From: Joostella atrarenae
Lineage (GTDB): Bacteria > Bacteroidota > Bacteroidia > Flavobacteriales > Flavobacteriaceae
NCBI RefSeq assembly: GCF_021764745.1
Contig: NZ_JAETXX010000002.1
Coordinates: forward strand, 186,001 to 250,000
Direction of reading: 5' to 3'
Length of the DNA stretch: 64,000 nt
The position numbers and the translations under genes are program-made. Positions 13,868 to 29,358 of the stretch are shown piece by piece; position 1 is the stretch's first letter; every line of letters starts with the position of its first letter. The notes beneath the pieces were generated by a model. The model did not search any database. It was not told the origin of the DNA and saw only the letters and a list, made by a program, of their open reading frames with translations.

Positions 13868-13870
13868 CTG

Positions 13871-14100
13871 TTGCTAACAATGGCTCCTATGAAAAGCACT
13901 AGTACAGTTTTTCAAAGTTAATATTTAGTATTGTAAAGTTGTAAAATTGCAAAGTCGCGAATCTGCAAATTGGCAGAAGGCATTTCTTTTTCTATACTCT
14001 TTAATCTTTTCTTTTTTTTTCTGATTACGGTTTCCCGTAAATATTTTCTTAATTGAATTGTTATATTTGGCTGAGAAATGAGCGTAATTGCGTTTGTTTG
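13871..14100 (+). repeat. Island repeat copy 3 (attC-like, promoter-bearing)
   Basis: Starts GCTAACAATGGCTCC, includes AAAAGCACTAGTACAG, the CTGCAAATTGGCAG palindrome, the dyad TTACGG-TTTC-CCGTAA and TATATTTG (14062-14069), and ends TTGCGTTTGTTTG. Its promoter points into the 3' end of the opposite-strand lysE gene, so here it drives no obvious sense gene. Confidence 0.85.
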
Positions 14101-14110
14101 GGAATTGTAA

Positions 14111-14742
14111 TTAATTTTTAGTTAATGCAATTTTTATTCCCATCAGAATAAATACTAATCCACTTAATTTATTTAACCAAAGTCCAGCACTTGGATTGTT
14201 CTTAAGTTTTTTAGAAAAAGCACTTGCAAAAATGGTTAAAATTAAAAACCAAACAATTCCAATTATCGCATAAGTAAGACCTAGTATAATAAATGGAACA
14301 GGGTTTTCCATTTGAGTAGGGTTGATGAATTGAGGAAAAAATGCCAAGAAGAATAATGCAACTTTTGGATTTAATGTATTAGTCAAAAATCCAGACCAAA
14401 AATCATTTTTCCCCTTTTCTAGAATTTGTTTCCCATCATCTGTTGGCAAAAAAGTCTTCTTGTTTTTAAACTTCAAAAACCCTAAATAAATTAAATAGAG
14501 AGCGCCTATATATTTTATTATTGTAAATGCGTATACTGAATTAGCAATAATGACAGACAATCCCAACGCAGCAAATAGAGTATGTGTTAAAACCCCTGTA
14601 TTTACGCCTAAAGTGGCATAAACACCTGACTTCCGACCTTGAGCTATAGACTTGTTCAGAACAAATATTGTGTCGATTCCTGGCGTCATTATAAAATTAA
14701 CGCCGTTATCATAAAAGCAAATATATTTTCGATTCCCATCAT
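14111..14742 (-). pseudogene. LysE/RhtB-family amino-acid exporter with a frameshift near the N-terminus
   Basis: LysE-type transporters export amino acids across the inner membrane. From the ATG at 14689 the frame gives 192 residues starting MTPGIDTIFVLNKSIAQGRKSG, which lacks the first helix of the family. That helix is present upstream in another frame: from 14739 it reads MGIENIFAFMITALIL and then hits TAA. One extra base in the A-run 14693-14696 (plus strand) would join the two as ...ITALIFIMTPGIDT. So it is either a one-base deletion that inactivates or shortens the gene, or a sequencing error. It diverges from a LysR gene, its likely regulator. Confidence 0.82.
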
Positions 14743-14846
14743 TTCCTTTTTTTTAAATTAAGCTAAAACTTTCAACAAATAAACTACTTGGGATTCAATT
14801 TTAAAATACATATTTTTGATTAATTAATGCAAAAAACGCATTACTC

Positions 14847-15713
14847 ATGACGATACAACAAATTAAATACTTTTTAGAACTTGCTAAAGAACTTCATTTT
14901 TGGAATACGGCAGAGAAGGTTTTTATATCGCAGTCCTCATTGAGCAGACAAATCCAAGCATTGGAAGATGAATTACAAATACAACTTTTTCAAAGGGACA
15001 AAAGAAATGTCAAGCTTACCAACGCAGGTAAATTTCTTCAAGAGCATTGGACAGAGAAAATCAAGGAGTTTGAACAAATAATAAGGCAGGCAAAAAAAAT
15101 TGAAGATGGAAAAGTAGGAACTATTTCAATAACTTATCCAGGTTCTATCGCTTATGAGTTTTTGCCAAAATTCTTGGAGGTTTTAAGCAATAATATGCCT
15201 GATTTAAAAACAGAATTAACAGAACCAACAGACGAAAATCATGAAAAGCTTTTATTGGACTTTAAAACCGATATAGCATTTAGTAGAGATGAAATTAATA
15301 ATGCAAATATTGACACTCAAAAACTTTATTCTGAACCAATATGTTTGGTCGTTCCTAAAAACCATAGGTTAATCAAGAAAGAGATTACTGGATTAGAGAA
15401 TGAAAAGTTCATTATTTCGGGTTTGCATCAAACAACCTTTTTTGCCTCATTATTAAGATCGTGGTTTTCAAAAAAAGGAATAGAACCTAAGACTATAATT
15501 GAATCGGATTTTGGAGGAATGATAATAAACCTCGTTTCAAAAGGACTTGGAATCTCTATTTTACCATTGTCGTTTAAATCGGCACAAGTAGAAAATGTTG
15601 AGTTTATAGAATTAGAAGAAAAAATAGATTTATACATAAATTGGCGAAAAAAGGAACTGAATGACACAATTAAAAAAGTAATTGAACTTGCTGAAAATAT
15701 TGTGGTAAAATAA
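14847..15713 (+). CDS. LysR-family transcriptional regulator
   Basis: The 288-residue protein starts MTIQQIKYFLELAKELHFWNTAEKVFISQSSLSRQIQALEDEL. This is the classic LysR winged helix-turn-helix (about residues 1-60), followed by a periplasmic-binding-like effector domain (about 88-285). It is divergent from the LysE-type exporter with a 104-base gap, the standard arrangement for regulator and target. The pair together fills one cassette-like interval, between repeat copies 3 and 4. Confidence 0.93.
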   Translation: MTIQQIKYFLELAKELHFWNTAEKVFISQSSLSRQIQALEDELQIQLFQRDKRNVKLTNAGKFLQEHWTEKIKEFEQIIRQAKKIEDGKVGTISITYPGSIAYEFLPKFLEVLSNNMPDLKTELTEPTDENHEKLLLDFKTDIAFSRDEINNANIDTQKLYSEPICLVVPKNHRLIKKEITGLENEKFIISGLHQTTFFASLLRSWFSKKGIEPKTIIESDFGGMIINLVSKGLGISILPLSFKSAQVENVEFIELEEKIDLYINWRKKELNDTIKKVIELAENIVVK

Positions 15714-15723
15714 AAACTGTTCT

Positions 15724-15935
15724 AACAACGTACTCTTTATAAAGTACTAACTTATTATTCTATCGTCTAGATTTTTAAATTCATGAATGAACTAATCAGC
15801 AAATTGAATAAGGCATTTCTTTTTTCTATACTCTTTAATCTTTTCTCTTTTTTACTGATTATGGATCCTCGTAAACAGTTTCTTAATTGAATTGCTATAT
15901 TTGAAGGGGAAGTGAGTGAGAGTACTACGTTTTGC
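15724..15935 (+). repeat. Island repeat copy 4 (worn)
   Basis: Starts AACAACGTACTC and keeps the GGCATTTCTTTTTTCTATACTCTTTAATC middle in altered form, GATTATGGATCCTCGTAA in place of the dyad, TTAATTGAATTG and TATATTTG (15896-15903). The left arm and the CTGCAAATTTGCAG palindrome are decayed. It is the last copy before the four-gene operon. Confidence 0.75.
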
Positions 15936-16239
15936 AAATTTAAGAATGAAATTCTAAAACTGAAAAATCGGAATTGCCTTACACTACTTAAAACTCTATC
16001 ATTTAGTATAGACAGAGTAAATTTTTGAACAAACTTATTGAAATTTAAATCTTGATGGAATAGCATCAATTTTGAAGTGAAAAACCTAGAACTTTAATTT
16101 AAATTTCTTGAAAAATTTACCAATGCGAAATTTTTAAAAATACATGGAACAACAGTTCATAACCTCAATTACTCTTTATTTTGTTTATGTTTAGAAAAAT
16201 ATCGTAAATTCACTCCGTGCCTGCGGTTATACTCTTAGT

Positions 16240-16431
16240 CAGCAATAATTAAAAATGAAAATGAGATATAATATCATATTGCTTTTATTAACATTCTTTT
16301 AGTTTGTTGAGAGGAAGAAAATGACTTGAAAGAGTTTAAATGGACAAGAGCTTTCGAAGGATGGTGGAATGGTTGATACTTCCATTAAAGAAAAAGAGAT
16401 CGTAGAAGCTAAAACTAAGAATGATTTATAA
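16240..16431 (+). pseudogene. Remnant of a small secreted-protein cassette
   Basis: AGTCAGCAATAATTAAAAATG at 16239-16257 resembles the start flanks at 13369 and 26936. From the ATG at 16255 the frame gives a signal-peptide-like MKMRYNIILLLLTFF and then a stop. Further on, other frames give short coding-like pieces (KEFKWTRAFEGWWNG; KEKEIVEAKTKNDL, ending at 16431). I read this as a frameshifted small gene. Nothing else is visible between 15936 and 16513 apart from AT-rich DNA. Confidence 0.4.
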
Positions 16432-16513
16432 TTGTATGGAACTCCGTTAAAATAAAGTTTGAAGAGTTCGCAAATGAGATAAAAGTGTTGAATTTTAGTT
16501 TGAATATATAATA

Positions 16514-18340
16514 ATGAAAGATACTAAGGAAAGGTGGTTGAGAGATTTTCGGAGATTTCTTCCTTTAAAAAGTCAGTTTGTCCTCTCTGGAAACACAAAG
16601 GATCTACAACTAACTTCAAATGATTCTAAAGGTTTTGGGTGGCATAAACTTGAAAATGTGATTGATGTAGAATTAAAGAATTACGGATATAGTCAGGTAG
16701 TTTATTACAATCCACTACAAGGATTTGAGATTCCTTTTTTCGAAGGAGAAGTTAAAGAAAAAGAAGCAATGTTCAAAGAGTTGCAGATTCCTTTGAAGAG
16801 AGATGATGGAGTATATAGCAATTTGACAACTTTTGATACTGTTTTACGAAACATTGTCGATTATGGTAAGAAGCCGATTGCACTTATTATTGATTTTGCC
16901 TCTCAGTTTTTAATAAATCCTGAAAATTTGCTCAAGGCAGAACATGATACTTTTACTCAAGCACACGTTTTATCCCAGAAGGCAGAAACGAGACCGTTTG
17001 GATCACCAACAAAACCTTTCTATAGCAGCATAATTTGGGTAGTAGACAAGGAAGGTGATTTGCCAGATTGGATGATCATCAATAACCCCAAGATCCGTCA
17101 TATCCCCATTGGTAAACCTGATCATATTGCACGTAGACGATTGTTAACTCCGTTGGTACAAGGGTTTTTCTATCCCCACCCAGAAAAAGCTGAAAAAGTC
17201 ATCGATGATTTTGTGGAAGAAACTGAAGGATTGTTATTACTCGATTTGGTAGCGATTTTGGAATTGGCTAGATCTGAGGGAATTTCCATTAATCACATTG
17301 CGGATGCAGTGAGACGTTACAAGTTGGGAGTAACAGAAGATCCTTGGATGAAAGTTGACAGAAAGAAAATTGAAGAAGGTGAAGCCTACATCCGAACTCG
17401 TGTAAAAGGTCAGGATCATTCCGTACAGCATTTGATGGACATTGTAAAACGTGCTATCACAGGAGTTGGTTCTTCCAAAAGAAACAATCGTCCTAGAGGT
17501 GTAGTTTTCTTGGCAGGACCAACTGGAGTTGGAAAAACGGAGTTAGCAAAAGCCATGACTAGTTTGCTCTTTGGAGATGAAAGTTCTTATATTAGATTTG
17601 ACATGTCTGAGTTTAGTGCCGAACATGCTTCACAACGATTGATTGGAGCACCTCCTGGTTACGTAGGATATGATGTGGGAGGGGAGTTGACTAACGCTGT
17701 TAGAGAGAAGCCATTTAGTGTAGTCTTATTTGATGAAATTGAAAAAGCACATCCGCGAATCTTAGATAAATTTTTGCAAATTTTAGATGATGGAGTTCTC
17801 ACAAGCGGACGTGGAGATAAAGTCTATTTTTCAGAAACTTTAATCGTGTTCACATCTAACTTAGGAATATATAAACAGTCAGTAACAGGGGAACGCGTTC
17901 CAAATGTTCGCTACGAAAACCCTTACGAAGTAGTTGAAGAAAAGGTGAAGGAAGAAATCGATCGCTATTTCAAATTTGACTTGAATCGCCCCGAGTTATT
18001 AAATAGAATTGGAGAAAACATTATCGTATTTGACTATATACGAAAAGACGTTGGTGAACTCATTTTCGATATGATGATCGACAATCATATTAACGACATT
18101 CAAGAACAATTGGAGATCACTATAAAGTTAGATTTCAATGTAAGAAATCAATTAAAACAATTATCCATTTCCGATTTAACCAATGGAGGACGTGGTGTTC
18201 GTAATATGATCGAATATCATTTTATTACACCCATTTCAAGGGCTTTGTTTTCATTGAACCCATCCAAAGGAGATGTAGTGGAAGCAATTGAAATTTTCAA
18301 CGAAAATCGATCCACTCATATTAAACTCCAATGTACTTAA
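16514..18340 (+). CDS. ClpB/Clp-like AAA+ ATPase with degenerate first AAA domain (candidate defence operon gene A)
   Basis: The 608-residue protein is cytoplasmic. Residues 300-608 form a Clp second-domain AAA+ module: Walker A GPTGVGKT (335-342), pore loop GYVGY (382-386), Walker B VVLFDE (403-408), sensor 1 TSN (447-449), RPELLNRIG (492-500) and a GGRGV sensor-2 region. Residues 1-280 resemble an AAA module without a Walker A (IALIIDF and SSIIWVVD blocks, then a helical lid). There is no Clp N-domain or ClpB coiled-coil middle domain. It is the first gene of a tight operon: the next gene starts five bases after its stop. Arginine codons CGA/CGT are frequent compared with AGA in the flanks, suggesting transfer. 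Confidence 0.9.
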   Translation: MKDTKERWLRDFRRFLPLKSQFVLSGNTKDLQLTSNDSKGFGWHKLENVIDVELKNYGYSQVVYYNPLQGFEIPFFEGEVKEKEAMFKELQIPLKRDDGVYSNLTTFDTVLRNIVDYGKKPIALIIDFASQFLINPENLLKAEHDTFTQAHVLSQKAETRPFGSPTKPFYSSIIWVVDKEGDLPDWMIINNPKIRHIPIGKPDHIARRRLLTPLVQGFFYPHPEKAEKVIDDFVEETEGLLLLDLVAILELARSEGISINHIADAVRRYKLGVTEDPWMKVDRKKIEEGEAYIRTRVKGQDHSVQHLMDIVKRAITGVGSSKRNNRPRGVVFLAGPTGVGKTELAKAMTSLLFGDESSYIRFDMSEFSAEHASQRLIGAPPGYVGYDVGGELTNAVREKPFSVVLFDEIEKAHPRILDKFLQILDDGVLTSGRGDKVYFSETLIVFTSNLGIYKQSVTGERVPNVRYENPYEVVEEKVKEEIDRYFKFDLNRPELLNRIGENIIVFDYIRKDVGELIFDMMIDNHINDIQEQLEITIKLDFNVRNQLKQLSISDLTNGGRGVRNMIEYHFITPISRALFSLNPSKGDVVEAIEIFNENRSTHIKLQCT

Positions 18341-18344
18341 CTCC

Positions 18345-18980
18345 ATGAAAATAGGAATTTCTAGATTGCATTTTCCAGTTACAACTCTTGGTCCTGGAAA
18401 ACGAATTGGAATTTGGCTCCAAGGATGTTCCATTCATTGTGAAGGTTGCATTTCTGTGGATACGTGGCAATTTGGAATAAATTCTGTTTCCTTAGATGAG
18501 GTGAAAGTATTGTTGAGGCGATGGTTGCCTGAGAGCGATGGAATCACTATTTCAGGAGGAGAACCTTTCGATCAAGAAGAAGCATTGTTTGAATTGTTAA
18601 AATTTTTAAGAACATATCAAAAATCGATTTTGATGTACAGTGGATATTCTTTTACAAAGTTGAAAGCGAAAAAAGAAATTAGAGATGGTTGGATTGATGT
18701 ATTAATTTCAGAACCTTATGATTATCAGCAGTCACAAACCAAAATTTTGATGGGAAGCGATAATCAACAAATTCATTTACTTACTAAATTGGGAAAATGT
18801 GATTTTGAAAGCTACTTAGAAAAATCACCTGAGAAAAAATTAGATGTACAGTTTGAAAGTGATTCAGTTTGGATGGCGGGAATTCCTAGAAATGGAATGT
18901 TTGAAATTGCGGAAACTGCCAAAAATAATAATGTTCATCTACAACACACACAAGGAGTCATAAAGCGTAAAAAGTCATGA
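18345..18980 (+). CDS. NrdG-like radical SAM activating enzyme (operon gene B)
   Basis: A 211-residue single-domain radical SAM protein. C28-x3-C32-x2-C35 (GCSIHCEGC) binds the 4Fe-4S cluster, and ISGGEPF (69-75) is the SAM-binding GGE block. Size and layout match activases such as NrdG or PflA, which make a glycyl radical on a partner. No NrdD/PFL-type partner lies near. The open frame extends back to 18288, but that overlaps gene A; the ATG at 18345 gives the normal family start (MKIGISRLHFPVTTLGPGKR). The stop overlaps the next start as ATGA, implying translational coupling. Confidence 0.9.
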   Translation: MKIGISRLHFPVTTLGPGKRIGIWLQGCSIHCEGCISVDTWQFGINSVSLDEVKVLLRRWLPESDGITISGGEPFDQEEALFELLKFLRTYQKSILMYSGYSFTKLKAKKEIRDGWIDVLISEPYDYQQSQTKILMGSDNQQIHLLTKLGKCDFESYLEKSPEKKLDVQFESDSVWMAGIPRNGMFEIAETAKNNNVHLQHTQGVIKRKKS

Positions 18981-21900
18981 AGTATATAAGAGTTTGTCCA
19001 TCCTGTGGGAGTCAACGACCCGTCCGCGAAATGTATTGTAAGAACACAGTAAAGGAGAGTTCTTGTGATTGGTTGTTGATGAATGTCAAGCAAACTCCCA
19101 TTGGTGGTACTATTGAAATTAAAGTAGAAGATGAATCAGTTCAACAGTACTGTGAAAATGGTCATGAAATTGGTTCAGGTGATTTTATGTGCATGGAATG
19201 TGGAGCCGATATTGAGGATACGCCTAATGCAGTTGAGAAAGATATAATTCGGAAAATTGAGGCTTACACGTTGGTGGAAAACATTCAAAATTCCAGCGCT
19301 ATCAAAGAGTGTTTTTTAGTCAAAAACAATCAAGGAAAAATTTACTTCATGACACTCTACCATAAAGATTGTGAACCTGACAAAGCCATATACAGTGTGT
19401 TGCAAAAATCAGATACAGATCATGTAGCGGAGTTGATTCAAATAGGTATTTGGGAAGATCGTTTTTTCGAAGTTACGGAACTAATCACAGGAAGTTCTAT
19501 CGAAAAAACAGCCTATTTAGAAGAAGCGAGGATTGAAAAATTAGTCGATGAGATTGGACGAGCTTTACGAGATTTTTCTGACTCAGGAATCCGCCATCGA
19601 GATTTAAGTCCAAATAATATTTTGATTCGCGACAAAGACAGTTTTGATCTCGTGATCATAGATTTTAGCTCTGCACGTTTGTCCGACTATGACTTAGATA
19701 CAGATACACCGTTAGAACTCACACGATACACAGCTCCCGAAGCTATCATAGGAGGCATAAGCCCTGCTTCAGATTGGTGGAGTTTGGGAATGGTAGTTTT
19801 AGAGCAAGTTACCAAAGGAAGCTTTTTTCAAAACATTAACGACAAAGCCTTTTTGATTCATTTGGTAACTCGAGGTGTACAATTACCAACAGATATCAAC
19901 GAGCGATTTTTATTATTATTAAAAGGGTTGTTGTGCAGAGATCCACTTAAACGATGGAATTGGCAACAAGTCGAAAAATGGCTGAACAGAGAATATGTCG
20001 CTCCACCTGAAGAATTCGAAAGGCCAGTTACTCAGAAAACTGAAAAAAGTATCAAACTTGGCAAGGAGATTCATGTCAATCCAAGTTATTTTGCTTTATC
20101 CGCTGCTGAAGAATCCAATTGGGAGAACGGATTGTCAGTATTCACTTCTGGTGAGTTGTCTAGTTGGATTGATGAAACAATACAAGATAAAAAATTAACT
20201 TCTACTATCAGAAATCTTCGAACTATGGAAGGTATCGATTTGGAGTGGCGATTTTCATTAACCCTGATGCATTTGAACAAATCCTTACCACTTACTTGGC
20301 GAGGTCAAATTATCATTCCCGCTTGGTTGTTAAGCAATCCAGAAATGGCAACACAATTGATTGAAGGAAAGATTCCATCATATTTAGAAGACATAGATCG
20401 TGAAAAATGGCTGGTGAGTCTAAAATCCAGAAAACTAAATATCGCCAGAAAAGCAAAGAATCTAGAAATAAATTTGAATCAAGATCGATTTACACTTAAT
20501 GCCTTGAGTACTTCACGAGTGAGATTGAAATCTGAAATGGATTTATTGCGTCAACTTTATCCTGATGCAAACAATATGAGTTTGTCCAATCTAATGGGCG
20601 ACCTCAGGCTTAGTGAAGAAGACTTAATTCTTATTATTAGTGCCGAACGGAATCAATTTGACGCATTAGAACAATTGGTGAAAGATACACTAGAACTTGC
20701 GAAAAGGAACCAAGTCGAAGTAAGCAATGATTTTTGCAGAGAATTTTTAGTCAAGTCGAGAGTGGAAATTTATGAGTTACTCATCCAACATTTGGAAGGA
20801 TTTTCTAGAAGTAAGAACGAAGCATTGAATCGCTGGGCAGAACAATTTCGAATCGAAAAACGATTACCACTCATCCAATCTATTTTATGTTTGTCGTTGC
20901 CCAAAGAAAAATGGATTACACCACCGAAGCATGAATATGCATCAAGTTTGTTACAGTTTTATGAGAAGAAAATCATCCATGCTTCTTCCCGTGGACCTTT
21001 AGTAAGACTGACCATTTCTACACATTCTGCACGAATTGATATAGCTGAATTTGGAACATCATTCAAGCCGTCAGAAAAGATTTTACTGCGAATTATCAAT
21101 CGTTCATCTAGCACCGAAACGGTAGATCCAATTGCCTTTAGTGAGAATAACTTGTTAGAACGACGTACCCGAAGAATGCTTTTGAAAGCTGACAATTTCA
21201 AACGCGATACTGGGTTGGATTCCTTGTACATGGGCTTCCCGTTCTTAGTTAGTCAAGGAAGATTAAAACATCGACCGCGAATCTTACCGATTTTATTGTG
21301 GCCTGTAAACCTTGTTTTGAATAATCGTGGTGCACCACGATTGAATATTGCATTTGACAAACACAATGGTGAAGTAAGAATTAATCCAGCATTGTCTAGT
21401 GTTTTAGATAGCGATGGTTTCGAAAGAATCAAGAAACTTTGCATTGAAATTCTAGCTAGACAAAGTTTGACTATTCAAGAAGTAATTGATGTATTGGGAT
21501 CATTTATCACACCTAAAAGCATCGAATTGACAACTCATCCTTCGGTTTCCTACATGCGAAAAGAGTCTGGGCAAGAGCTCTATTGCTCCGCAGTCTTTTT
21601 CAATGCCAACTTCACAGGACAAGCCATTAGTGAGAACATGCGAATGTTGCAAAAATTACCGCATTCCAATACCGCAATGGAATCTATGTTAAAGATTAAC
21701 GAGCCTGAAACTATCAAGTTTGAAGAGAAGGTTAAGGAAAGCAATCGATATACAGTCGTTGCGGTCGATCCATCTCAAGAAAAAGCAGTATTACAAAGTC
21801 GATTAAATCCTGGAATCGTCATTGAAGGTCCACCAGGAACAGGTAAAAGTCAGACAATTGTTAACATCATAGCTGATAGTATCGGGCGGCAAGAAAAGGT

Positions 21901-24900
21901 CTTGGTAGTGTCACAAAAACGAGCTGCCATTCAGGTAATTCTAAAGAGGTTGGAAGCTATCGGGTTGGAACAACGGGTAATCACGATTACAGATATTAGT
22001 CGAGACCGACAAGCTACGATTCAGAGTGTGAGAGAGCAGATTCCGAATTTCTTGGAGAAATTACAACACAATAGTTTACTTACAGAAATTGAGATTCAAC
22101 GTAACAGTGTTGCTAAGCAAATCGATCGAATTGAATCGGAATTGAATGTTTTACCTGAAGAGATTCATAGTATGGACGACGTATCTGGGACAACCTATAG
22201 AAACATTCTTTCTGAGTTGATTGAATTGCAATCCAAAGTTTACATCGATGTTCCAGAAGCTCGCGGATTCCTAGAATTCAAAACTGCCGATGATCTCAAT
22301 CGACTTGAAGAACAAATCAAAGGCTTGATCCATTATTGGATGCCTTCAGCGTATGAAAGGAGCTCTTTGGTTAATTTCAAACTTACTCAATTTGACGAAT
22401 CCACGAGAAATGCTGTTCAGGCAGATTTGGAAAAGTTTCATCAAGTAGAAGAAAAACGAGTCGCTTGTTTGGAACAAACTTCCAATATATTTGATGGACT
22501 AGAAGCTCAATATTATGGGGATTGGCTAGATCAACATGGACAAAAAATAGAATGCATTTCGGAAAGTGATGTGTTCAATATTCAGCAATGGTTTGACTTG
22601 TTATACGATGAATACAATAATACTTCCATCGCTCAAGATATTTCTAAAGAACTCGATAAAATCTCTAGACAAGTAGAAGAGTTGATAGCGAGTTCACAAT
22701 ACGAACATTTTTCAGAAAGCTTACAAAAGTTAAGTGATAAAGAGTTAGAGAAACTCAAAAGCAGCTGTGATTATTTCTTGAGCAAGTCCTTTTTTAAATT
22801 TTTGAATCCTTTTGGTTTCGTTTACAAAGATCGACTTAAGAAAATACTGAAACCACAACATTTAAAACCCAACTCAACATCGGTTCATGAGTTAACTGTA
22901 GTTATAGGACAAGAGCAGTCATTTCGCAGTTATCGAAGTCAATTTTTTAGACGATTAGACAAGCTCAAAGTTGTTAAAGAGAAAATTGCTGGAGTCAAAT
23001 TTTTGCGAGTGAAAATTGGAAGCAAAAACAATGAATTACAAGAAGCTATTCAATGGGTAGATCGCATTAAGAGTTGTCCATTAAAAAATGAAGCGAGAAA
23101 GGTATTGAAAACAGGCATCGTTTCAGAATATCAAGAATTTGTGACCAACCTAAAAGATGCCCACGAACGTTATAAATCCAAACAATCATCCCAAGAAAAA
23201 TTAACTTCTTTAAGTGAATGGTTAGAGCCTAAAATTACTGAAGAGTTTGCAGCTGAAATTAGAAAGAATGGCACCAATATTTCCATGTTGCAACAAATGC
23301 TATTGGATATGGAACACTACATTCCTTATCAAAAATTCAGAATGCGTTTGGGTACTGGAAATGATCATAGTAGCTTACTGAGATTGTTCAGTTTGCTTAG
23401 AGAGTATGAAGATAAAATTGCTAACTTTCCCTCTGATGAATGGAGTAGTGTGATTCAAACAACAATCCGAAGAGAGGGATTGTTCGGATGGAAACAACGA
23501 ATCGAAAAAGAATCACCATCCTTGTTGATGAGTGAACGCGAAATTCAACTCAATATTGAATCTTTGGAAAATTTACTCGTAAGAATACGTGATCTCAACC
23601 GACAATTACTCAATTTGAGTATTGACGTGAACAAGTTAGGATCGAAATCCGAATGGAATAATATCACGCGATTACGAGGAAAGAACTACAAAAAATTACG
23701 AGAATTCATCAGATTAGGAACTGATATAGGGTTAATGGATTTACGCCCTGTTTGGTTGATGAGCCCAGAAGTTGTCTCCCAAGCTATTCCATTACAATCA
23801 GGATTATTTGATGTGGTAATTTTTGATGAAGCTTCGCAAATGCTTATCGATCACTCAATTCCTGCACTCTATCGAGCCAAAAGAGTGATTATAAGCGGAG
23901 ACGAAAAGCAAATGCCACCGACTGGATTTTTTGCACAAAAATTGGACGATGATGAAGATGAGCAAGAATTGAGTTTGAGTGAAGATCATTCCGAAGCAGA
24001 ACTGGCACGTTATCAAGACGCTTGGAATCGCAAAGAAGTCAAAGACTGTCCTGATTTACTAACCTTGGCAAAATCAGTATTGCCAGTAACGACCTTAGAG
24101 ATTCACTATCGATCTCAATTCCAATCTTTGATTAAGTTCTCTAACCATGCTTTTTATGGAGGGCAATTACATGTTCCTGCTTTTCATCCGAAGAATGTAA
24201 TTATCAGCAAAAAACCACTGGAAGTTTTGCGTATTAATGGAGTTTACGATGAGCAAACCAACGATGCAGAGGCAGATGCTTTGATAGATTATATTTCAGA
24301 GCACTGGCAGCTTCCTGAATCAGAGCGATTTAGTGCGGGAATTGTGACTTTCAATAAGAAGCAGGCAGAACTCATTGAAGACAAAATTCAAGAACGTGAA
24401 CTGAATGATGAAGTTTTTCGAAAAGTGTTGAATAAAGAACGAAACAAGCAACAAGAAGGAGAAGATATGGGATTCTTTGTGAAAAATGTAGAGAATGTAC
24501 AAGGAGACGAACGTGATATGATTTTGTTTAGCACTACTTTCGGGTTAAATCCGCATGGGGTATTTCGTAGAAATTTTGGAGCCTTAGGTCATCGAGGTGG
24601 AGAACGACGTTTGAATGTTGCTATCACACGTGCGCGCTACAAAGTAGTTATTGCTACCTCGATGCCTATTAAAGATATTTCTGATGTTTTATCCACAGGT
24701 CGACCGCCTTCTAAACCTAGAGATTTCATTCAGTCATATCTGAACTTTTCGGAGATTCATTCCAACGGTCAGATTGACATCGCCACAAACAAAGTGAAAA
24801 GGTTCTCAGCAAATAATTCAATAGAAGACATTCAATTAAAAAACGATGGATTCAAGAATACTGTGAAATCCTATATTGAAAGTTTAGGATACGAGGTCGT

Positions 24901-25162
24901 GGAAAACAACGATTATAATGTGTTTTATTTGGATTTAGCCATCGAAAACAACGGTCGATTTGTTTTGGGAATTGAATGCGATTCACCGAAGAATGTCTTG
25001 TTAAAAAAAGCACGATATCGCGAATTGTGGCGATTACAAGTTTTAAAGAAAACTATCCCAACAATTTATAGAACCACGTCCTATCGATGGTTGAAAGATA
25101 GCAAAACAGAACAAGATCGATTGAAAAAAGCAATAGAACATGCCATAAATACCAACATATGA
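18977..25162 (+). CDS. Zinc ribbon - protein kinase - SF1 helicase - PD-(D/E)XK nuclease fusion (operon gene C)
   Basis: A 2061-residue multidomain protein. Residues 7-80 hold two Cys pairs/ribbons (CPSCG, CMECG). A Ser/Thr-kinase-like domain spans about 90-340: HRDLSPNN (207-214), IDFSSA in place of DFG, TAPE, SDWWSLG; a beta-3 lysine is not obvious. A long middle region includes helices and coiled coil. The UPF1/COG1112-like SF1 helicase has Walker A GPPGTGKS (951-958), DEAS (1617-1620), SGDEKQMPP, HYRSQF, VQGDERD and NVAITRAR. The C-terminus resembles the nuclease domain of MTES_1575 helicases (LDLAI..., D1986; GIECD, E2000). It overlaps genes B and D by four bases each. A kinase-helicase of this sort is known from Mokosh type I; the PLD partner is absent here. 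Confidence 0.9.
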   Translation: MKYIRVCPSCGSQRPVREMYCKNTVKESSCDWLLMNVKQTPIGGTIEIKVEDESVQQYCENGHEIGSGDFMCMECGADIEDTPNAVEKDIIRKIEAYTLVENIQNSSAIKECFLVKNNQGKIYFMTLYHKDCEPDKAIYSVLQKSDTDHVAELIQIGIWEDRFFEVTELITGSSIEKTAYLEEARIEKLVDEIGRALRDFSDSGIRHRDLSPNNILIRDKDSFDLVIIDFSSARLSDYDLDTDTPLELTRYTAPEAIIGGISPASDWWSLGMVVLEQVTKGSFFQNINDKAFLIHLVTRGVQLPTDINERFLLLLKGLLCRDPLKRWNWQQVEKWLNREYVAPPEEFERPVTQKTEKSIKLGKEIHVNPSYFALSAAEESNWENGLSVFTSGELSSWIDETIQDKKLTSTIRNLRTMEGIDLEWRFSLTLMHLNKSLPLTWRGQIIIPAWLLSNPEMATQLIEGKIPSYLEDIDREKWLVSLKSRKLNIARKAKNLEINLNQDRFTLNALSTSRVRLKSEMDLLRQLYPDANNMSLSNLMGDLRLSEEDLILIISAERNQFDALEQLVKDTLELAKRNQVEVSNDFCREFLVKSRVEIYELLIQHLEGFSRSKNEALNRWAEQFRIEKRLPLIQSILCLSLPKEKWITPPKHEYASSLLQFYEKKIIHASSRGPLVRLTISTHSARIDIAEFGTSFKPSEKILLRIINRSSSTETVDPIAFSENNLLERRTRRMLLKADNFKRDTGLDSLYMGFPFLVSQGRLKHRPRILPILLWPVNLVLNNRGAPRLNIAFDKHNGEVRINPALSSVLDSDGFERIKKLCIEILARQSLTIQEVIDVLGSFITPKSIELTTHPSVSYMRKESGQELYCSAVFFNANFTGQAISENMRMLQKLPHSNTAMESMLKINEPETIKFEEKVKESNRYTVVAVDPSQEKAVLQSRLNPGIVIEGPPGTGKSQTIVNIIADSIGRQEKVLVVSQKRAAIQVILKRLEAIGLEQRVITITDISRDRQATIQSVREQIPNFLEKLQHNSLLTEIEIQRNSVAKQIDRIESELNVLPEEIHSMDDVSGTTYRNILSELIELQSKVYIDVPEARGFLEFKTADDLNRLEEQIKGLIHYWMPSAYERSSLVNFKLTQFDESTRNAVQADLEKFHQVEEKRVACLEQTSNIFDGLEAQYYGDWLDQHGQKIECISESDVFNIQQWFDLLYDEYNNTSIAQDISKELDKISRQVEELIASSQYEHFSESLQKLSDKELEKLKSSCDYFLSKSFFKFLNPFGFVYKDRLKKILKPQHLKPNSTSVHELTVVIGQEQSFRSYRSQFFRRLDKLKVVKEKIAGVKFLRVKIGSKNNELQEAIQWVDRIKSCPLKNEARKVLKTGIVSEYQEFVTNLKDAHERYKSKQSSQEKLTSLSEWLEPKITEEFAAEIRKNGTNISMLQQMLLDMEHYIPYQKFRMRLGTGNDHSSLLRLFSLLREYEDKIANFPSDEWSSVIQTTIRREGLFGWKQRIEKESPSLLMSEREIQLNIESLENLLVRIRDLNRQLLNLSIDVNKLGSKSEWNNITRLRGKNYKKLREFIRLGTDIGLMDLRPVWLMSPEVVSQAIPLQSGLFDVVIFDEASQMLIDHSIPALYRAKRVIISGDEKQMPPTGFFAQKLDDDEDEQELSLSEDHSEAELARYQDAWNRKEVKDCPDLLTLAKSVLPVTTLEIHYRSQFQSLIKFSNHAFYGGQLHVPAFHPKNVIISKKPLEVLRINGVYDEQTNDAEADALIDYISEHWQLPESERFSAGIVTFNKKQAELIEDKIQERELNDEVFRKVLNKERNKQQEGEDMGFFVKNVENVQGDERDMILFSTTFGLNPHGVFRRNFGALGHRGGERRLNVAITRARYKVVIATSMPIKDISDVLSTGRPPSKPRDFIQSYLNFSEIHSNGQIDIATNKVKRFSANNSIEDIQLKNDGFKNTVKSYIESLGYEVVENNDYNVFYLDLAIENNGRFVLGIECDSPKNVLLKKARYRELWRLQVLKKTIPTIYRTTSYRWLKDSKTEQDRLKKAIEHAINTNI

Positions 25163-26499
25163 GTGGACCCAAAGTAGTACGGATTGTAACGCCAGAAGAG
25201 CGAGAAATAATCAAAGCCCGATGGTTGACTAGATTGCAACATAACATTGAAAATCTGAAGGAGTATGCCAAGAAAAGTGATGTACTTAATGACGAACTGA
25301 TGCGTGGTTTAGAAGGAACCTTGTCACATTACCAAGCAATTTCGGCAGACGAATACGAAAAGATTGAACGTGAAGTTCCAAATCAAATTAAGTATTTGAA
25401 AGCTGAAAAAGCCAAATTGGTAAAGAAAGTTACCAAAGAGAAAACCTCTACATGGGATCATTATCGAAAACTAAAAAGTACACTTCATGAGTTGCAAAAA
25501 CTAATGCAAGAAAGAAATGTTTCATTTGAAGCCATTGAAGAGCCCAAGTTGCTAACCAAAAAGAGTATATCGCATTTTGGGGAGCAAGTAGATGCTATGT
25601 ACGATCTGTTGAAGGCAGATTTGAATCTACAAGGAAGTTTGACTACAGAGCAAAAGGAAATTCAAAAACGGCTATCAGCTGGGGATTCTTTATTGTTAGT
25701 GGAAGTTTGGAGTAAAGATATTCCCAAAGAATTAAACCGACAGCAGAAGTTTGAACAAACCTTAAGAGATTTATATATAGACGATGTTTCTGAAGATAAG
25801 ATCCAAGAGTTTATACACAAAGTGAATCAACTAAATCAAAGTGATATACACTACATAATACAGCTAGACTCTTTAATTCTAGAAGCTGCAACTTTCCACA
25901 AAGAACAATTGGAACTAAGAACTGCCAAACAAGAATTAAGGGAAGCCTTACAGCTGCTAAAAGGATTAAATCAAGAATTAACAATAATCATAAAATGGGA
26001 ATCGTTAATAACCACTAATAACACTAAAAAGATTCATAGAGTAACTCAAAGAGCTAAACAATTGTACGAAGAAATCTCAGAGACTATCATTGTAGAAACT
26101 CGTCGAGCAGCGATTGAGAAAGCATTAACTAAAGTAGGATACGAAGTTAACGATAACATGGAAACTGCTTGGGTAGACAACGGTCGATTGGTAGTAAAAA
26201 AAGCTAAAAACTCTTTGTATGGAGTGGAGTTTATGAGTCCAAAGAACTTGTCGAGAATTCAGGCACGAGTAGTAGCTGACGAAAATCGATCTCAAGAGAG
26301 AAGTCATAGATTGGACAAACATCAAGAAGAGATTTGGTGCGATGATTTTACCGAGATTCGAGAGATTTTAGAAAAGGAAGACTTATCTATTCGCATTGAA
26401 AAAGCAAATGCGGTTGGAGCTATTCCCATCAAGGAAGTTAAATTAGAGAGCAGGTTTACGAGAAATATCCAATCCGTCAAAAAGAAAAAAACTCTATAA
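25159..26499 (+). CDS. Coiled-coil protein with MSGPKVV N-terminus (operon gene D)
   Basis: A 446-residue, highly charged protein dominated by predicted coiled coil (about 20-120, 170-330), with no membrane segment or signal peptide. It begins MSGPKVVRIVTPEEREII, a short N-terminal peptide I remember from other uncharacterised coiled-coil proteins; this is recollection, not a search. Residues about 330-380 form a possible small alpha/beta unit (ALTKVGYEVNDNMETAWVDNG). It ends in a Lys-rich tail. Its ATG overlaps the stop of the kinase-helicase gene (ATGA), so it is the coupled last gene of the operon and probably a structural or adaptor partner. Confidence 0.85.
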   Translation: MSGPKVVRIVTPEEREIIKARWLTRLQHNIENLKEYAKKSDVLNDELMRGLEGTLSHYQAISADEYEKIEREVPNQIKYLKAEKAKLVKKVTKEKTSTWDHYRKLKSTLHELQKLMQERNVSFEAIEEPKLLTKKSISHFGEQVDAMYDLLKADLNLQGSLTTEQKEIQKRLSAGDSLLLVEVWSKDIPKELNRQQKFEQTLRDLYIDDVSEDKIQEFIHKVNQLNQSDIHYIIQLDSLILEAATFHKEQLELRTAKQELREALQLLKGLNQELTIIIKWESLITTNNTKKIHRVTQRAKQLYEEISETIIVETRRAAIEKALTKVGYEVNDNMETAWVDNGRLVVKKAKNSLYGVEFMSPKNLSRIQARVVADENRSQERSHRLDKHQEEIWCDDFTEIREILEKEDLSIRIEKANAVGAIPIKEVKLESRFTRNIQSVKKKKTL

Positions 26500-26762
26500 A
26501 TAATGTCGAGATAAAAGGTTAAAGAGAAGAAGATGAATATCAATTTGGTTGTTTAGGATTACATTTTGAAAGTTTGAGGTTGGCATATCCGAAAAAATCG
26601 TAAGGCACTTAAAAAAAAGTGTGAAATCAGCGAGTGAATATCCATGTGGAGTAAGTAAAAATAGATTTTTTTAAGATCGAGTTTGCTAAACAAGATTCTA
26701 AGAATTTAAAATAGTGCATAATCTAACTCCAATGGGATACTTTAAAAAAGCTATTATAGCTC

Positions 26763-26872
26763 GGTGTTTAGGGTGTACTTTGCCAGATATGCACCATACA
26801 CAAAACGTTAGTAAACACTTTGTTCTTTAATCTTTTTTCTGATTATGGATCCTCGTAAATAGTTTCTAAATT
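26763..26872 (+). repeat. Imperfect hairpin and worn island repeat copy 5
   Basis: GTGTTTAGGGTGTA (26765-26778) pairs imperfectly with GCACCATACAC (26794-26804). This is followed by a repeat remnant TTCTTTAATC...TTTTTTCTGATTATGGATCCTCGTAAATAGTTTCT at 26823-26869 that lacks the TATATTTG box. The stretch 26500-26762 after gene D holds no gene that I can see. Confidence 0.55.
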
Positions 26873-26960
26873 TAACAAGATATGATAAACTTGAATATTT
26901 ATAAACTACTGATTTCCAAAATAAAATTTTGCGTTAGTCAGAATTAAAACAAACCGCTAC

Positions 26961-28616
26961 ATGACAAAAATTCTAACTACTATTTTACTTATCTCCTCTA
27001 TGATTTCATCTGGACAAGAGTTGAGTACAATAAGAGTTTCTGTTCCTAATAAAACAGACGAAGTTTTTATTGTCGGAAATCAAGAAAGTCTTGGAAATTG
27101 GCAACCGGAAAAAGTCAAAATGAACAAGACATCTGACTATGAAAGAGAAATATCCTTGAATTTAACTTTCCCAGCAGAGTTTAAATTTACACGTGGTAAC
27201 TGGAACAGTGAAGCTATTATTAAAAAGCTTTATGGGCAACCTAACTTCATCTTATCTGAAAGACCAAATAAAGCCAAAAGTTATAAAATTCAAGGATGGA
27301 GTGATAAAATTGATAGCTATTCGACTTTTAACACTTTTTTAATTCAAAGTTTGTATTCAGAAATACTAAATGCTGACCGAAAAATTTACATTGCATTACC
27401 CGAAAATTATTCTAAAAGCACTAATTATCCTGTTATATATATTACTGACGCACAAAACTTAAATAATTTCGAAATTGCTCAACAAACAATTAGACAGCAA
27501 TCAAAATTTAAAAATTTTCCAGAAACCATTATGGTTGGTATTTATCAGTCTGACAGAAATGCAGATTTTGGTCTGAATAAAGTAACACTATACAACGAAA
27601 AGTTTCAAAATTTTATTTTTAACGAGTTAATTCCTTTTATAGATAAAACATACTCAACAAGTGATTATAAAGCAATTATTGGACATTCAAATGGTTCTGA
27701 ATATAACCATTATTTAATGTTTGCTGATAACAATCCATTTAATGCTTTTGTAAATATTAGCGAAGAGATTAATGCATTGTTTCCTTATATGGACCAAAGT
27801 TGGTTTCACAAAAGTAAGGACAAATACCAAAGTTTCTTCGAGCATTATTCAGGTAAACAAATTGACTTATTTATTGCGAGCGGAAAATATGACTTTTGGC
27901 ACAGACTAAAGGCTGGAAAGGTTATAGATAGTCTTTACAAAGCTTACCCAAACACCAAGATTAACTTTAAGCACAAATTATTTTCAGCCGAACATAATAG
28001 CCTTGTCGGTCAATCAATGTTTGATGCTTTGCAGTTTATTTTTAATGACTTCAAGAATTTTGAAACTTTTGAAACAGATTTAAAAAGCACAAAGAGTTTC
28101 AAACAAGCAAAAAGTATTTTTTTAGAGAACTCAAAGCGATATGGAAATTATGAAATGTCCATAGAAGATGAAGATATAATCCAAACGATTGTTTTTAATA
28201 CGAAAAACTTTGAACTTTTTCAACAATGGAATGTTAGCGAGAATGTGAACAATCAACTATACTCAAACTTGATTTTAGGAAGTATTTTAACAGACATTGA
28301 CCCTGAAAAAGCTTCGCAATATTATGAAAAAGCAATAGAGGAAAGAGATAAAGAAATTTCCAATTTCCTACAATCTATTATTTACAACGAAGTACAAGTT
28401 TTAAATCGACCTAAAGAAGCAATTACAAAACTTGACAAAATCCTTGAAATTAACCATGTAAATAAATTAGCAATAAACTATTTTATTTCAAAAACGAGTA
28501 TTGAAAATGGTATAGAACTCTCGAAAGGGAAAAAGGCACTTAATTATTGTGAAATGAATTATGTTGAGAACAGATATTTTACAAAAAATGATTTAAAAAG
28601 ATTAATGCTCAAATAA
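26961..28616 (+). CDS. Secreted esterase with N-terminal CBM20-like domain
   Basis: A 551-residue exported protein with a signal peptide at about 1-18 (MTKILTTILLISSMISSG). Residues 20-105 resemble a starch-binding CBM20 fold (VFIVGNQESLGNWQPEKVKMNK). An alpha/beta hydrolase of the IroE/esterase-D type spans about 110-360: nucleophile S243 in GHSNG, then a likely His in the AEHNSLVG block. The C-terminal 190 residues are helical and TPR-like (ASQYYEKAIEERDKE). Related family members hydrolyse ester-linked siderophores or sugar esters; the substrate is not shown here. It is a single-gene cassette ending in repeat copy 6. Confidence 0.87.
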   Translation: MTKILTTILLISSMISSGQELSTIRVSVPNKTDEVFIVGNQESLGNWQPEKVKMNKTSDYEREISLNLTFPAEFKFTRGNWNSEAIIKKLYGQPNFILSERPNKAKSYKIQGWSDKIDSYSTFNTFLIQSLYSEILNADRKIYIALPENYSKSTNYPVIYITDAQNLNNFEIAQQTIRQQSKFKNFPETIMVGIYQSDRNADFGLNKVTLYNEKFQNFIFNELIPFIDKTYSTSDYKAIIGHSNGSEYNHYLMFADNNPFNAFVNISEEINALFPYMDQSWFHKSKDKYQSFFEHYSGKQIDLFIASGKYDFWHRLKAGKVIDSLYKAYPNTKINFKHKLFSAEHNSLVGQSMFDALQFIFNDFKNFETFETDLKSTKSFKQAKSIFLENSKRYGNYEMSIEDEDIIQTIVFNTKNFELFQQWNVSENVNNQLYSNLILGSILTDIDPEKASQYYEKAIEERDKEISNFLQSIIYNEVQVLNRPKEAITKLDKILEINHVNKLAINYFISKTSIENGIELSKGKKALNYCEMNYVENRYFTKNDLKRLMLK

Positions 28617-28621
28617 TTAGG

Positions 28622-28854
28622 CATAACAATGGCTCCTATGAAAAGCACTAGTCCAGTTTTTTTAAAGTTAATATTTAGTATTGTAAAGTTGTAAAACTGC
28701 AAAGTCGCGAATCTGCAAATTTGCAGAAGGCATTTCTTTTATCTTCACTCTTTAGTCTCTTCTCTTTTTTTCTGATTACGGATTCCTGTAAAAAGTTTCT
28801 TAATTGAATTGCTATATTTGAAGGAGAAATAAACGTGAGTGCGTTTGTCTAGAA
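28622..28854 (+). repeat. Island repeat copy 6 (attC-like, promoter-bearing)
   Basis: Best-preserved copy. Left arm CATAACAATGG...AAAAGCACTAGTCC; right arm GTGAGTGCGTTTG...GAAGTTGT. The complement of the right arm shares ACAA and an AAA(C)GCACT block with the left arm. In between are the palindrome TCTGCAAATTTGCAGA, GATTACGGATTCCTGTAA (dyad with one change) and TATATTTG (28813-28820), which points at the lipoprotein gene starting at 28867. Confidence 0.88.
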
Positions 28855-28866
28855 GTTGTAAAGCAT

Positions 28867-29358
28867 TTGAAAAAAAGACTCCAAATAATATTATTTTTTA
28901 TGATTTGTGTTAGCTGCTCAAATGCTAACAAACAGAAAGGGGTAATAACACAAACCAGGTTCCTTTGTGGATTTTCAAATGATTCTTTGAAAATTAGAAC
29001 TGAATATAAACTGATTAAGGTCTCATCTGACTCAATGATCAAGTATGATTATGTGAGTTACACTGATTCTTCTAAAAATTTTAGTTTAGAATTTAAAAAG
29101 TATAAAAATCAATTATTGATTCATCATACTGGTTATAAAAAAAAGGAACTTAATCGATTTATAAATCAAAGAATCTCAATGGATAATTTTGACGTTTATA
29201 CTTTTATTGAACCTGAAATTGATGGTATGTCGCCTATCCTATTCAATTCAAGTTATGGAATTCTAGCAATTGGGAATCCATTAGGACCAGCGGCAATTTT
29301 TATTGAGAGAAAACAGGATTTTGAATTGAGCACCGAAATTTTAGACAAACTGTATTAA
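28867..29358 (+). CDS. Small lipoprotein of unknown function, cassette gene
   Basis: A 163-residue protein starting at TTG 28867, only 12 bases inside the cassette. Residues 1-17 form a lipoprotein signal (LKKRLQIILFFMICVSC, lipid Cys at 17), so it should be anchored to a membrane. The mature part has no family I recognise; it contains GYKKKELNRF and a Gly/Pro-rich segment (GILAIGNPLGPAAIF). The cassette edges are perfect partners: GTTGTAAAGC (28855-28864) before the gene and GCTTTACAAC (29366-29375) after it. Confidence 0.78.
   Translation: MKKRLQIILFFMICVSCSNANKQKGVITQTRFLCGFSNDSLKIRTEYKLIKVSSDSMIKYDYVSYTDSSKNFSLEFKKYKNQLLIHHTGYKKKELNRFINQRISMDNFDVYTFIEPEIDGMSPILFNSSYGILAIGNPLGPAAIFIERKQDFELSTEILDKLY

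What the first reader, a model, noticed from the sequence alone, without database searches (positions are those of the whole stretch)
16514..26499. Four-gene operon: ClpB-like AAA+, radical SAM, kinase-helicase-nuclease fusion, MSGPKVV coiled coil
Seen: genes A-D are packed with a 4-base gap then two ATGA overlaps, on one strand, with CGA/CGT-rich arginine use unlike the flanks, inside a cassette island beside an OLD nuclease. Known: kinase plus COG1112-type helicase in one protein occurs in Mokosh type I defence, and MTES_1575-like nuclease domains end many such helicases. Inference: a multi-component anti-phage or self/non-self system in which a Clp-type remodeller and a radical SAM enzyme join the helicase-nuclease. 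The Mokosh PLD partner is absent, and this set does not match a system I can name.
Basis: partly seen in the sequence, partly recalled or inferred. Interest (0 to 1): 0.92.

Follow-up and report, generated by a model that had tools for sequence, protein, structure and literature searches.

The report
Radical-SAM, unfoldase and helicase-nuclease operon
A compact set of four bacterial genes travels together between distantly related bacteria and looks like a DNA-destroying defence machine controlled by a protein-unfolding motor, a radical enzyme and a rod-shaped adaptor, a combination not found under any system name in the libraries and papers searched here.

Summary
The four-gene operon is real: A 16514-18340, B 18345-18980, C 18977-25162, D 25159-26499. 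All 9 close radical-SAM loci found in other Flavobacteriaceae carry A-B-C-D in this order. On plasmids, all 8 records with a near-full C also hold A, B and D. A is a ClpB-D2-like AAA+ with a degenerate first AAA; B an NrdG-like radical SAM; C zinc ribbons, kinase fold, SF1 helicase and PD-(D/E)XK nuclease; D an MSGPKVV coiled coil. Correction: C's kinase has Thr for the beta-3 Lys in all 12 copies aligned, so it is probably a pseudokinase. Relatives of A, B and D recur with other partners: kinase, FHA, PP2C in Firmicutes; helicase plus PIN in gammaproteobacteria. The operon lies in a 22.6-kb stretch that is 0.7-2.0 kb in 5 of 6 congeners. Best reading: a mobile anti-DNA, probably anti-phage, helicase-nuclease gated by A, B and D. 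Defence is inferred; flanks are not clearly enriched in defence genes. B's substrate is unknown; 6 of 10 operon genomes showed neither glycyl-radical family.

The parts
16514..18340 (+). Gene A: AAA+ unfoldase, 608 aa, ClpB/ClpC D2-like
   Evidence: AAA_2 E=1.1e-48; best NCBIfam match ClpB, residues 257-590, 255 bits, cut-off 1232; Walker A, Walker B, pore loop GAPPGYxGY, TSN and LNRPE intact in 10 of 10 copies checked
16514..17323 (+). A N-terminal domain, read as a degenerate first AAA (GNxxD in place of the P-loop)
   Evidence: alignment of 11 A proteins from five groups; weak ATPase_2 match below cut-off; low-confidence AF2 model (pLDDT 59) aligned along its length with ClpC/ClpB tandem AAA chains, but at TM about 0.25 and rmsd about 20, so only a hint; inference
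17492..18013 (+). A active AAA+ domain
   Evidence: Pfam AAA_2, residues 327-500
18345..18980 (+). Gene B: NrdG/PFL-activase-like radical SAM protein, 211 aa
   Evidence: Fer4_12 E=6e-24; NrdG E=4.5e-23 but below the equivalog cut-off
18426..18449 (+). B CX3CX2C cluster motif (C28, C32, C35)
   Evidence: 11 of 11 copies checked
18977..25162 (+). Gene C: zinc ribbons, pseudokinase, SF1 helicase, PD-(D/E)XK nuclease, 2061 aa
18977..19216 (+). C N-terminal zinc-ribbon-like Cys clusters
   Evidence: Cys/His pattern shared by flavobacterial and Rhizobium/Caballeronia copies; assigned by eye
19265..19987 (+). C protein-kinase fold, probably a pseudokinase
   Evidence: Pkinase E=2.6e-24; beta-3 Lys position is Thr in 9 of 9 flavobacterial and 3 of 3 proteobacterial copies; HRD kept in 11 of 11; DFG Asp kept in 9 of 9 flavobacterial, lost in 3 of 3 proteobacterial copies; Lys present in 7 of 7 stand-alone kinases of related clusters
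21143..21406 (+). C DUF4011-like stretch
   Evidence: Pfam E=1.2e-7, above cut-off
21767..24655 (+). C SF1 helicase (AAA_11/AAA_12)
   Evidence: Pfam; motifs I, II, III, V in 11 of 11; motif VI as A[IV]TRAR in the 7 aligned copies
24851..25135 (+). C nuclease domain, REase_MTES_1575
   Evidence: 59.5 bits against cut-off 38.2; D...GIECD kept in all 7 aligned copies
25159..26499 (+). Gene D: coiled-coil protein with an invariant MSGPKVV start, 446 aa
   Evidence: MSGPKVV in 11 of 11 four-gene sets checked and in two plasmid loci with a shortened C
25159..25179 (+). D MSGPKVV N-terminus
25192..26133 (+). D helical rod
   Evidence: AF2, ten-residue means 73-94 in residues 11-150 and 191-310, lower between
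26089..26403 (+). D C-terminal domain (RR..AI..L..GYE ... WCDDF)
   Evidence: profile-profile link to the same region of proteins in two Firmicutes-side clusters, P 2.5e-6; AF2 low confidence here
8933..31544 (.). Inserted stretch between the PhoH and Gfo/Idh genes
   Evidence: 22.6 kb here; 0.7-2.0 kb in 5 of 6 congeneric genomes, the sixth has the two genes on different contigs

Best explanation
A four-component, horizontally transferred restriction-type conflict system. C is the effector: an SF1 helicase that moves on DNA and a C-terminal PD-(D/E)XK nuclease that cuts it. A, B and D gate C. D is a rod-shaped adaptor that holds C, using C's zinc ribbons and pseudokinase as the docking platform; A, a ring unfoldase with an intact substrate-threading pore but no protease gene beside it, pulls on D (or on C through D) to arm or release the nuclease; B, a 4Fe-4S radical SAM enzyme, puts a radical-made mark on D or A that decides when this happens. 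Shown here: gene content and order, co-inheritance, intact motifs in A, B and the helicase and nuclease of C, the lost kinase lysine, the inserted stretch. Inferred: DNA as target, anti-phage or anti-plasmid role, every protein contact, B's substrate, and the order of events.
For: Full set in 9 of 9 close flavobacterial loci and in 8 of 8 plasmid records where C covers at least 80 percent (looked at gene by gene in 3: L017, L018, L021). Pairwise distances of A, B, C and D correlate at 0.88-0.99 among 7 flavobacterial sets, reached by 0 to 2 of 999 permutations. C residues 724-2058 match candidate or named anti-phage helicase-nucleases: PDC-S37 485 bits, ProA 500 bits; Hhe 286 bits in two stretches. 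The stretch is missing by spacing in 5 of 6 congeners, and D was not found in any of the 6; other copies are on plasmids, some predicted conjugative. A, B and a coiled coil recur with other nucleic-acid proteins: SF1 helicase plus PIN protein in Acinetobacter and Photobacterium, helicase-nuclease plus kinases, FHA and PP2C in Aristaeella. Neither PF01228 nor PF13597 was found in 6 of 10 operon genomes, this one included, which argues that B serves the operon and not a glycyl radical enzyme of the host.
Against: No functional data. Flanks are mostly ordinary genes and not clearly enriched in defence genes. In the 8 Firmicutes-side loci no ORF matched the helicase or nuclease references used (they were not scanned with Pfam), so the A-B core is not tied to such an effector everywhere. 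4 of 10 operon genomes do have a glycyl radical family. Contact of B with D is a guess. AF2 models of A and D were weak. C came in two or three pieces in 4 of the 8 plasmid records, so some copies may be damaged.
Confidence: 0.55

Rival explanations
1. A DNA repair or stress-response complex of the host: C processes damaged or stalled DNA, A and B respond to oxidative or redox state, and D scaffolds them; mobility is incidental.
For: Radical SAM clusters are sensitive to oxygen and redox state (recalled); mostly ordinary flanks; Firmicutes-side relatives with kinase, FHA and PP2C look like a signalling module.
Against: Patchy presence: D in 2 of 99 relatives, the window genome included, and in 1 of 395 genomes of the phylum sample, the window genome itself; stretch missing in congeners; C resembles anti-phage helicase-nucleases best.
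Confidence: 0.2
2. An abortive toxin-type system: C is a nuclease held inactive by D; A strips D away on infection and C then damages the host genome.
For: A has an intact threading pore; D is a rod-shaped partner with an invariant N-terminus that could be the handle for A.
Against: No protease gene in the operon; nothing shows that C is toxic; B has no clear role in this scheme.
Confidence: 0.15
3. Phosphorylation-controlled defence as in TerY-P: the kinase domain of C phosphorylates system parts.
For: Kinase fold with HRD and, in flavobacteria, the DFG Asp kept; related clusters carry kinase, FHA and PP2C.
Against: Beta-3 Lys is Thr in 12 of 12 aligned C proteins, while 7 of 7 stand-alone kinases keep it; no FHA or PP2C gene in the operon.
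Confidence: 0.1

Closest known systems
PDC-S37 (PADLOC candidate) and anti-phage protein ProA (NF058533)
   Same: Best matches of C: residues 725-2058 and 724-2058, 485 and 500 bits
   Different: Below the ProA cut-off of 1500; residues 1-723 of C (zinc ribbons, kinase fold, unknown middle) lie outside both matches; PADLOC matched no model to B or D
Hhe (DUF4011 anti-phage protein)
   Same: DUF4011 and helicase region of C matched
   Different: 286 bits against a cut-off of 2000; single-gene system (recalled)
Mokosh type I (MkoA/MkoB)
   Same: Kinase fold and helicase in one protein (Mokosh composition recalled)
   Different: Best MkoA stretches lie in the helicase region of C; no PLD partner; kinase lysine lost; A, B, D extra
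TerY-P phosphorylation triads
   Same: Related Firmicutes-side and Aristaeella clusters join kinase, PP2C and zinc-ribbon/FHA proteins, in Aristaeella with a DUF4011 helicase
   Different: No vWA (TerY) protein recognised, and the kinase in C is probably dead; composition of TerY-P from PMC11090510, passages
FtsH ternary conflict systems (Kaur et al. 2020, PMC7159879)
   Same: Tandem AAA+ with an inactive first domain, and a radical SAM enzyme in some
   Different: Those use FtsH-type AAA+, MoxR and vWA proteins and a Memo/AMMECR1-type radical SAM (section 21 whole, section 24 a passage); here ClpB-D2-type AAA+, NrdG-type radical SAM, no MoxR or vWA
Ycf46-like AAA, DUF1257, DUF2997 and 4Fe-4S protein cassettes (label Ycf46 recalled)
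   Same: AAA+ and a 4Fe-4S single-cluster protein in one short cluster (Paenibacillus L032, Rhodococcus L031, Paenarthrobacter L077)
   Different: The AAA is of another type (AAA plus AAA_lid_3 in the L012 relative); DUF2997 resemblance was found for a mixed group of seven D-like proteins from gammaproteobacteria, a cyanobacterium and Firmicutes (P 6e-6), not for flavobacterial and rhizobial D (P 0.4)

Membership tests
Mokosh type I | MkoA kinase-helicase protein | tested here: inconclusive
   Best stretches of two MkoA models are residues 1610-1897 and 914-1171 of C
Mokosh type I | PLD nuclease partner (definition recalled) | tested here: not met
   No PLD match in A, B or D
ProA (NF058533) | Score over the equivalog cut-off of 1500 bits | tested here: not met
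   500 bits
Hhe | Score over the equivalog cut-off of 2000 bits | tested here: not met
   286 bits
PDC-S37 | Match to the candidate model | tested here: inconclusive
   485 bits over 100-1343 of 1550; no cut-off printed
ClpB disaggregase | Equivalog cut-off of 1232 bits; two active AAA+ domains | tested here: not met
   255 bits, D2 region only; no P-loop motif in the first domain
NrdG / glycyl-radical activases | CX3CX2C cluster motif | tested here: met
   11 of 11 copies checked
NrdG / glycyl-radical activases | NrdG equivalog cut-off of 126 bits | tested here: not met
   82 bits
NrdG / glycyl-radical activases | A glycyl radical enzyme to activate in the same genome | tested here: not met
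   None in this genome (99.99 percent complete); PF01228 in 3 and PF13597 in 1 other of 10 operon genomes; completeness of the other nine not told
Active protein kinase | Beta-3 (VAIK) lysine | tested here: not met
   Thr in 12 of 12 aligned C proteins; position set by alignment
Active protein kinase | HRD and DFG aspartates | tested here: inconclusive
   HRD in 11 of 11; DFG Asp in 9 of 9 flavobacterial, absent in 3 of 3 proteobacterial copies
TerY-P triad | vWA, PP2C and kinase genes together | tested here: not met
   No vWA or PP2C among the Pfam matches shown for A-D (for C the best 25 of 27 shown) or for nine other island proteins
FtsH ternary system | MoxR and vWA components | tested here: not met
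   No vWA among the matches shown; bpMoxR on A only at E=0.12, below cut-off
PD-(D/E)XK MTES_1575 nuclease | Score over the Pfam cut-off and acidic residues kept | tested here: met
   59.5 bits, cut-off 38.2; D and E kept in 7 of 7
Any anti-phage system | Protection against phage | not testable with these tools
   Needs a phage challenge

The most novel reading that the evidence does not exclude
A, B and D are a cross-phylum control module (tandem AAA+ unfoldase with a dead first ring, NrdG-type radical SAM enzyme, MSGPK-type coiled coil) in which the radical enzyme installs a radical-made modification, perhaps a glycyl radical, on the coiled coil, and the unfoldase uses it as a switch for exchangeable partners: helicase-nuclease in flavobacteria and rhizobia, helicase plus PIN in gammaproteobacteria, kinase/FHA/PP2C signalling in Firmicutes. 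This would be a new class of immune control, radical-gated, without a counterpart among the named systems looked at here.
Probability: 0.3. Interest if true: 0.92.

Novelty: new variant of a known kind. Interest (0 to 1): 0.72.

Why it matters
Helicase-nuclease defence proteins are common, but how they are kept off host DNA is often unknown. Here the same effector type is locked to an unfoldase, a radical SAM enzyme and a rod protein in Bacteroidota and Proteobacteria, and relatives of these three appear with other partners elsewhere. That gives a testable set of parts for a new control logic and offers a function for orphan NrdG-like radical SAM proteins in genomes where no glycyl radical enzyme was found.

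Tried and rejected
Paper searches for a published description (listings and beginnings of abstracts seen): ProA/DUF4011, ProA/ProB, radical SAM with anti-phage, AAA+, kinase, TerY/PP2C/radical SAM, radical SAM/TerY-P/NrdG, Ycf46/DUF1257 (90), ProA/antiphage, radical SAM/ClpB/PP2C, Mokosh/radical SAM. No listed title or abstract beginning described this gene set. Text read: PMC7159879 section 21 whole and other passages; passages of PMC10853773, PMC11090510 and PMC10250203. The library holds open-licence papers only; the source paper of 'ProA' was not found.

Phage records: 51 matched A, none over 80 percent of it; the 20 rows listed cover only the ClpB-like second domain. Viral contigs, searched through short peptide patterns: one A relative (L029), none for D or for the rhizobial B.

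The A N-domain profile hits 79 of 395 Bacteroidota genomes, the window's own included, but in the 6 loci that I read of the other 78 it is an AAA protein with no neighbour matching B or D by BLAST; so that domain alone is no marker of the system.

DUF1257/DUF2997 kinship of D: not shown for flavobacterial and rhizobial D (P 0.021 and 0.4); a lead only, through a mixed group of seven gammaproteobacterial, cyanobacterial and Firmicutes-side D-like proteins (DUF2997 P 6e-6, DUF1257 P 0.012) and a Pfam match of E 0.05, below cut-off, in one of them. D groups: of 21 pairs compared, 7 are below P 1e-4 (flavo-rhizo, flavo-firm2, rhizo-firm1, rhizo-firm2, firm1-firm2, firm1-cyano, gamma-cyano); flavo-gamma (0.08), flavo-cyano (0.73) and flavo-L054 (0.32) do not link directly; the lowest of five column shuffles per pair was 0.035. 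D against solved structures: only two weak coiled-coil matches, E 0.04 and 0.09.

Flank scan: 126 flanking ORFs listed from 12 loci; 69 from the 9 flavobacterial loci scanned, one incomplete ORF and 56 proteobacterial ones left out. 20 of the 69 were then scanned singly to place the matches. Control: 62 ORFs from 7 regions of operon genomes, 56 scanned, 6 edge ORFs left out. 6 against 2-3 matched ORFs is no clear enrichment. A8 and A9 are unrelated proteins put together only to allow a batch scan.

Motif table used 11 of 13 full sets; L005 and L007, close to L004, were left out.

Full report
What is there. The operon reads as reported: A 16514-18340, B 18345-18980, C 18977-25162, D 25159-26499, all on the + strand, with a 4-base gap and two 4-base overlaps. 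GC is 0.369 against about 0.30 in the 5 kb on either side, and CGA makes 36 percent of arginine codons against 12 percent in the 40 other ORFs of 150 aa or more; CGT is not enriched.

Where it lies. The window's assembly is held as G000; the named close relatives are Flavobacteriaceae. The PhoH gene (7976-8932) and the Gfo/Idh gene (31545-32534; both names from reading the sequence) are 22.6 kb apart here, but 0.7 to 2.0 kb apart in 5 of 6 other genomes of the genus; in the sixth they are on different contigs. None of the 6 has D. So the operon lies in an inserted stretch, which also holds an AAA_15/AriA-like ATPase at 11141-13063, LysE and LysR genes and an esterase.

What the proteins are. 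A: Clp-type D2 AAA+ with intact Walker A and B, threading pore loop and arginine-finger region; its first 270 residues alternate strands and helices in a low-confidence model and have a GNxxD motif where a P-loop would be, read as a degenerate AAA. B: NrdG/PFL-activase-like radical SAM with CX3CX2C and GGEPF in 11 of 11 copies checked; the only solved relatives found by sequence are two pyruvate formate-lyase activase sequences, E 2e-4 and 5e-4, over residues 13-81. C: Cys-rich ribbons, a kinase fold, a DUF4011-like stretch, SF1 helicase, MTES_1575 nuclease. D: rod of helices with an invariant MSGPKVV start and a small C-terminal domain.

The kinase. In C the residue aligned with the beta-3 lysine is Thr in 9 of 9 flavobacterial proteins and 3 of 3 proteobacterial ones. 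HRD is kept; the DFG Asp is kept in the flavobacterial and lost in the 3 proteobacterial proteins. In 7 of 7 stand-alone kinases of related clusters the lysine and both aspartates are present.

Co-occurrence. The search with B gave 13 loci; 9 (65-84 percent identity) all carry A, C and D in the same order; the other 4 (30-40 percent) showed no C or D, and in 3 of them (L011-L013) B stands beside a different AAA protein. On plasmids D is in 11 records, C over at least 80 percent of its length in 8, A at E below 1e-80 in 12. The 8 with C are also among those with A and D, and B was found in all 8 (with the Aristaeella B as query); in 4 of these 8 the C match came in two or three pieces, so some may be damaged. 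Four of the eight are Rhizobium leguminosarum and not independent samples. Of the other three D records, Microvirga and Roseomonas have C cut short beside transposase genes, and the third, an R. leguminosarum record with a partial D match, was not opened. Distances of the four proteins correlate (0.88-0.99 in 7 flavobacterial sets) and dN/dS is 0.04-0.16 where computable. The D profile was found in 1 of 395 genomes of the phylum sample (the window's own) and the D protein in 2 of 99 relatives: a rare, patchy trait.

Relatives of the core. Aristaeella lactis carries a DUF4011 helicase, kinase, MSGPK coiled coil, FHA, B, A, PP2C, a DUF6273 protein and a second kinase in a row. Acinetobacter WCHA55 and Photobacterium toruni carry SF1 helicase, PIN protein, coiled coil, A and B (Pfam run on the Photobacterium pair). 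Geminocystis NIES-3708 has B, several unknown genes, a coiled coil and A in one stretch. In a sample of 299 genomes of the phylum of a Firmicutes MAG, 8 have A. In those 8 loci B is beside A in 6 (L048, L049, L050, L052, L053, L055); one contig ends inside A (L051); in one no B was found (L054). Coiled-coil proteins lie in the same cluster as A in 7 (L048, L050-L055; partly by position and reading, partly by profile), the eighth contig being 5.7 kb long; a kinase in 6, an FHA-type protein in 4, PP2C in 3. No ORF there matched the helicase and nuclease references that I used; the ORFs were not scanned with Pfam. The D C-terminal regions are linked by profile comparison in a chain, 7 of 21 pairs below 1e-4, not all against all.

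Function. Facts that point to defence: C's match to anti-phage helicase-nuclease models, mobility, the inserted stretch, and helicase or PIN partners in relatives. Facts that do not: ordinary flanks in most loci. Of 69 flanking ORFs 6 matched a PADLOC family at 1e-10: KwaA near L005 (strong), an RT at the contig end of L001 (which may be of an intron or another element), a WYL regulator beside L006, a beta-galactosidase-like match in L008 and two radical SAM proteins scored as pVip, one of them L005:1050-2444. The 56 control ORFs gave SspA, DndA and mad3, in 2 or 3 ORFs. That is no clear enrichment.

What B does. Of the 10 operon genomes, PF01228 is in 3 and PF13597 in 1 other; 6 showed neither, the window genome included (completeness is told only for the window genome among these). 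So B is unlikely to serve a housekeeping glycyl radical enzyme there, and a substrate within the operon is the economical guess. D is my first candidate because its start is invariant over phyla and it is the only component without a known catalytic fold; A is the second.

Comparison with known systems. Nothing here passes a membership test of a named system (see the table). The closest ideas in print that I read are the FtsH ternary systems with a radical SAM enzyme of another type (PMC7159879, section 21 whole and passages) and TerY-P modules tied to helicase systems (PMC11090510, passages). [quoted passage not shown] aeruginosa defence hotspot cDHS1; whether that pair is related was not tested.

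Verdict. A real, conserved four-gene unit, unnamed in the libraries and paper searches used; most likely a gated DNA-attacking defence system; the mechanism of the gate is unproven.

Noticed in passing
window 11141-13063: AAA_15 ATPase, best PADLOC match AriA, inside the same inserted stretch; could be a separate defence gene.
   Followed up: partly
L031 4252-7989; L032 8067-10934; L077 3956-7624; L079 245-7036; L080 1910-6734: Plasmid clusters of a Ycf46-like AAA and DUF2997 (DUF1257 in L032, L079, L080) with a 4Fe-4S cluster protein nearby: a recurring AAA plus radical SAM pairing of unknown function.
   Followed up: partly
L025 4725-14444 and L026 6692-16399: Helicase, PIN protein, coiled coil, A and B cassette on Acinetobacter WCHA55 plasmid pNDM1_010055 and on a Photobacterium toruni plasmid; apparently a sister system with another effector.
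   Followed up: partly
L022 9668-27234: Nine-gene Aristaeella lactis cluster with helicase-nuclease, two kinases, FHA, PP2C, MSGPK coiled coil, A and B on a 44-kb record.
   Followed up: partly
L052 15062-19437: ORFs that look by eye like type III CRISPR RAMP proteins close to the A-B-FHA-PP2C cluster of an unnamed Firmicutes-side genome; not tested.
   Followed up: no
L019 10576-13899; L020 359-2319: C genes cut short next to transposase genes in Microvirga and Roseomonas plasmids, D present and open.
   Followed up: no
L093-L098: AAA protein with the same N-domain in Bacteroidota (78 of 395 sampled genomes besides the window's), with no B or D beside it in the 6 loci read.
   Followed up: partly
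L029 9971-11857: A relative, 61 percent identical to the rhizobial A, at the end of an IMG/VR contig.
   Followed up: no
L006 18295-19311: WYL-domain regulator directly after D in Maribacter, on the opposite strand.
   Followed up: partly
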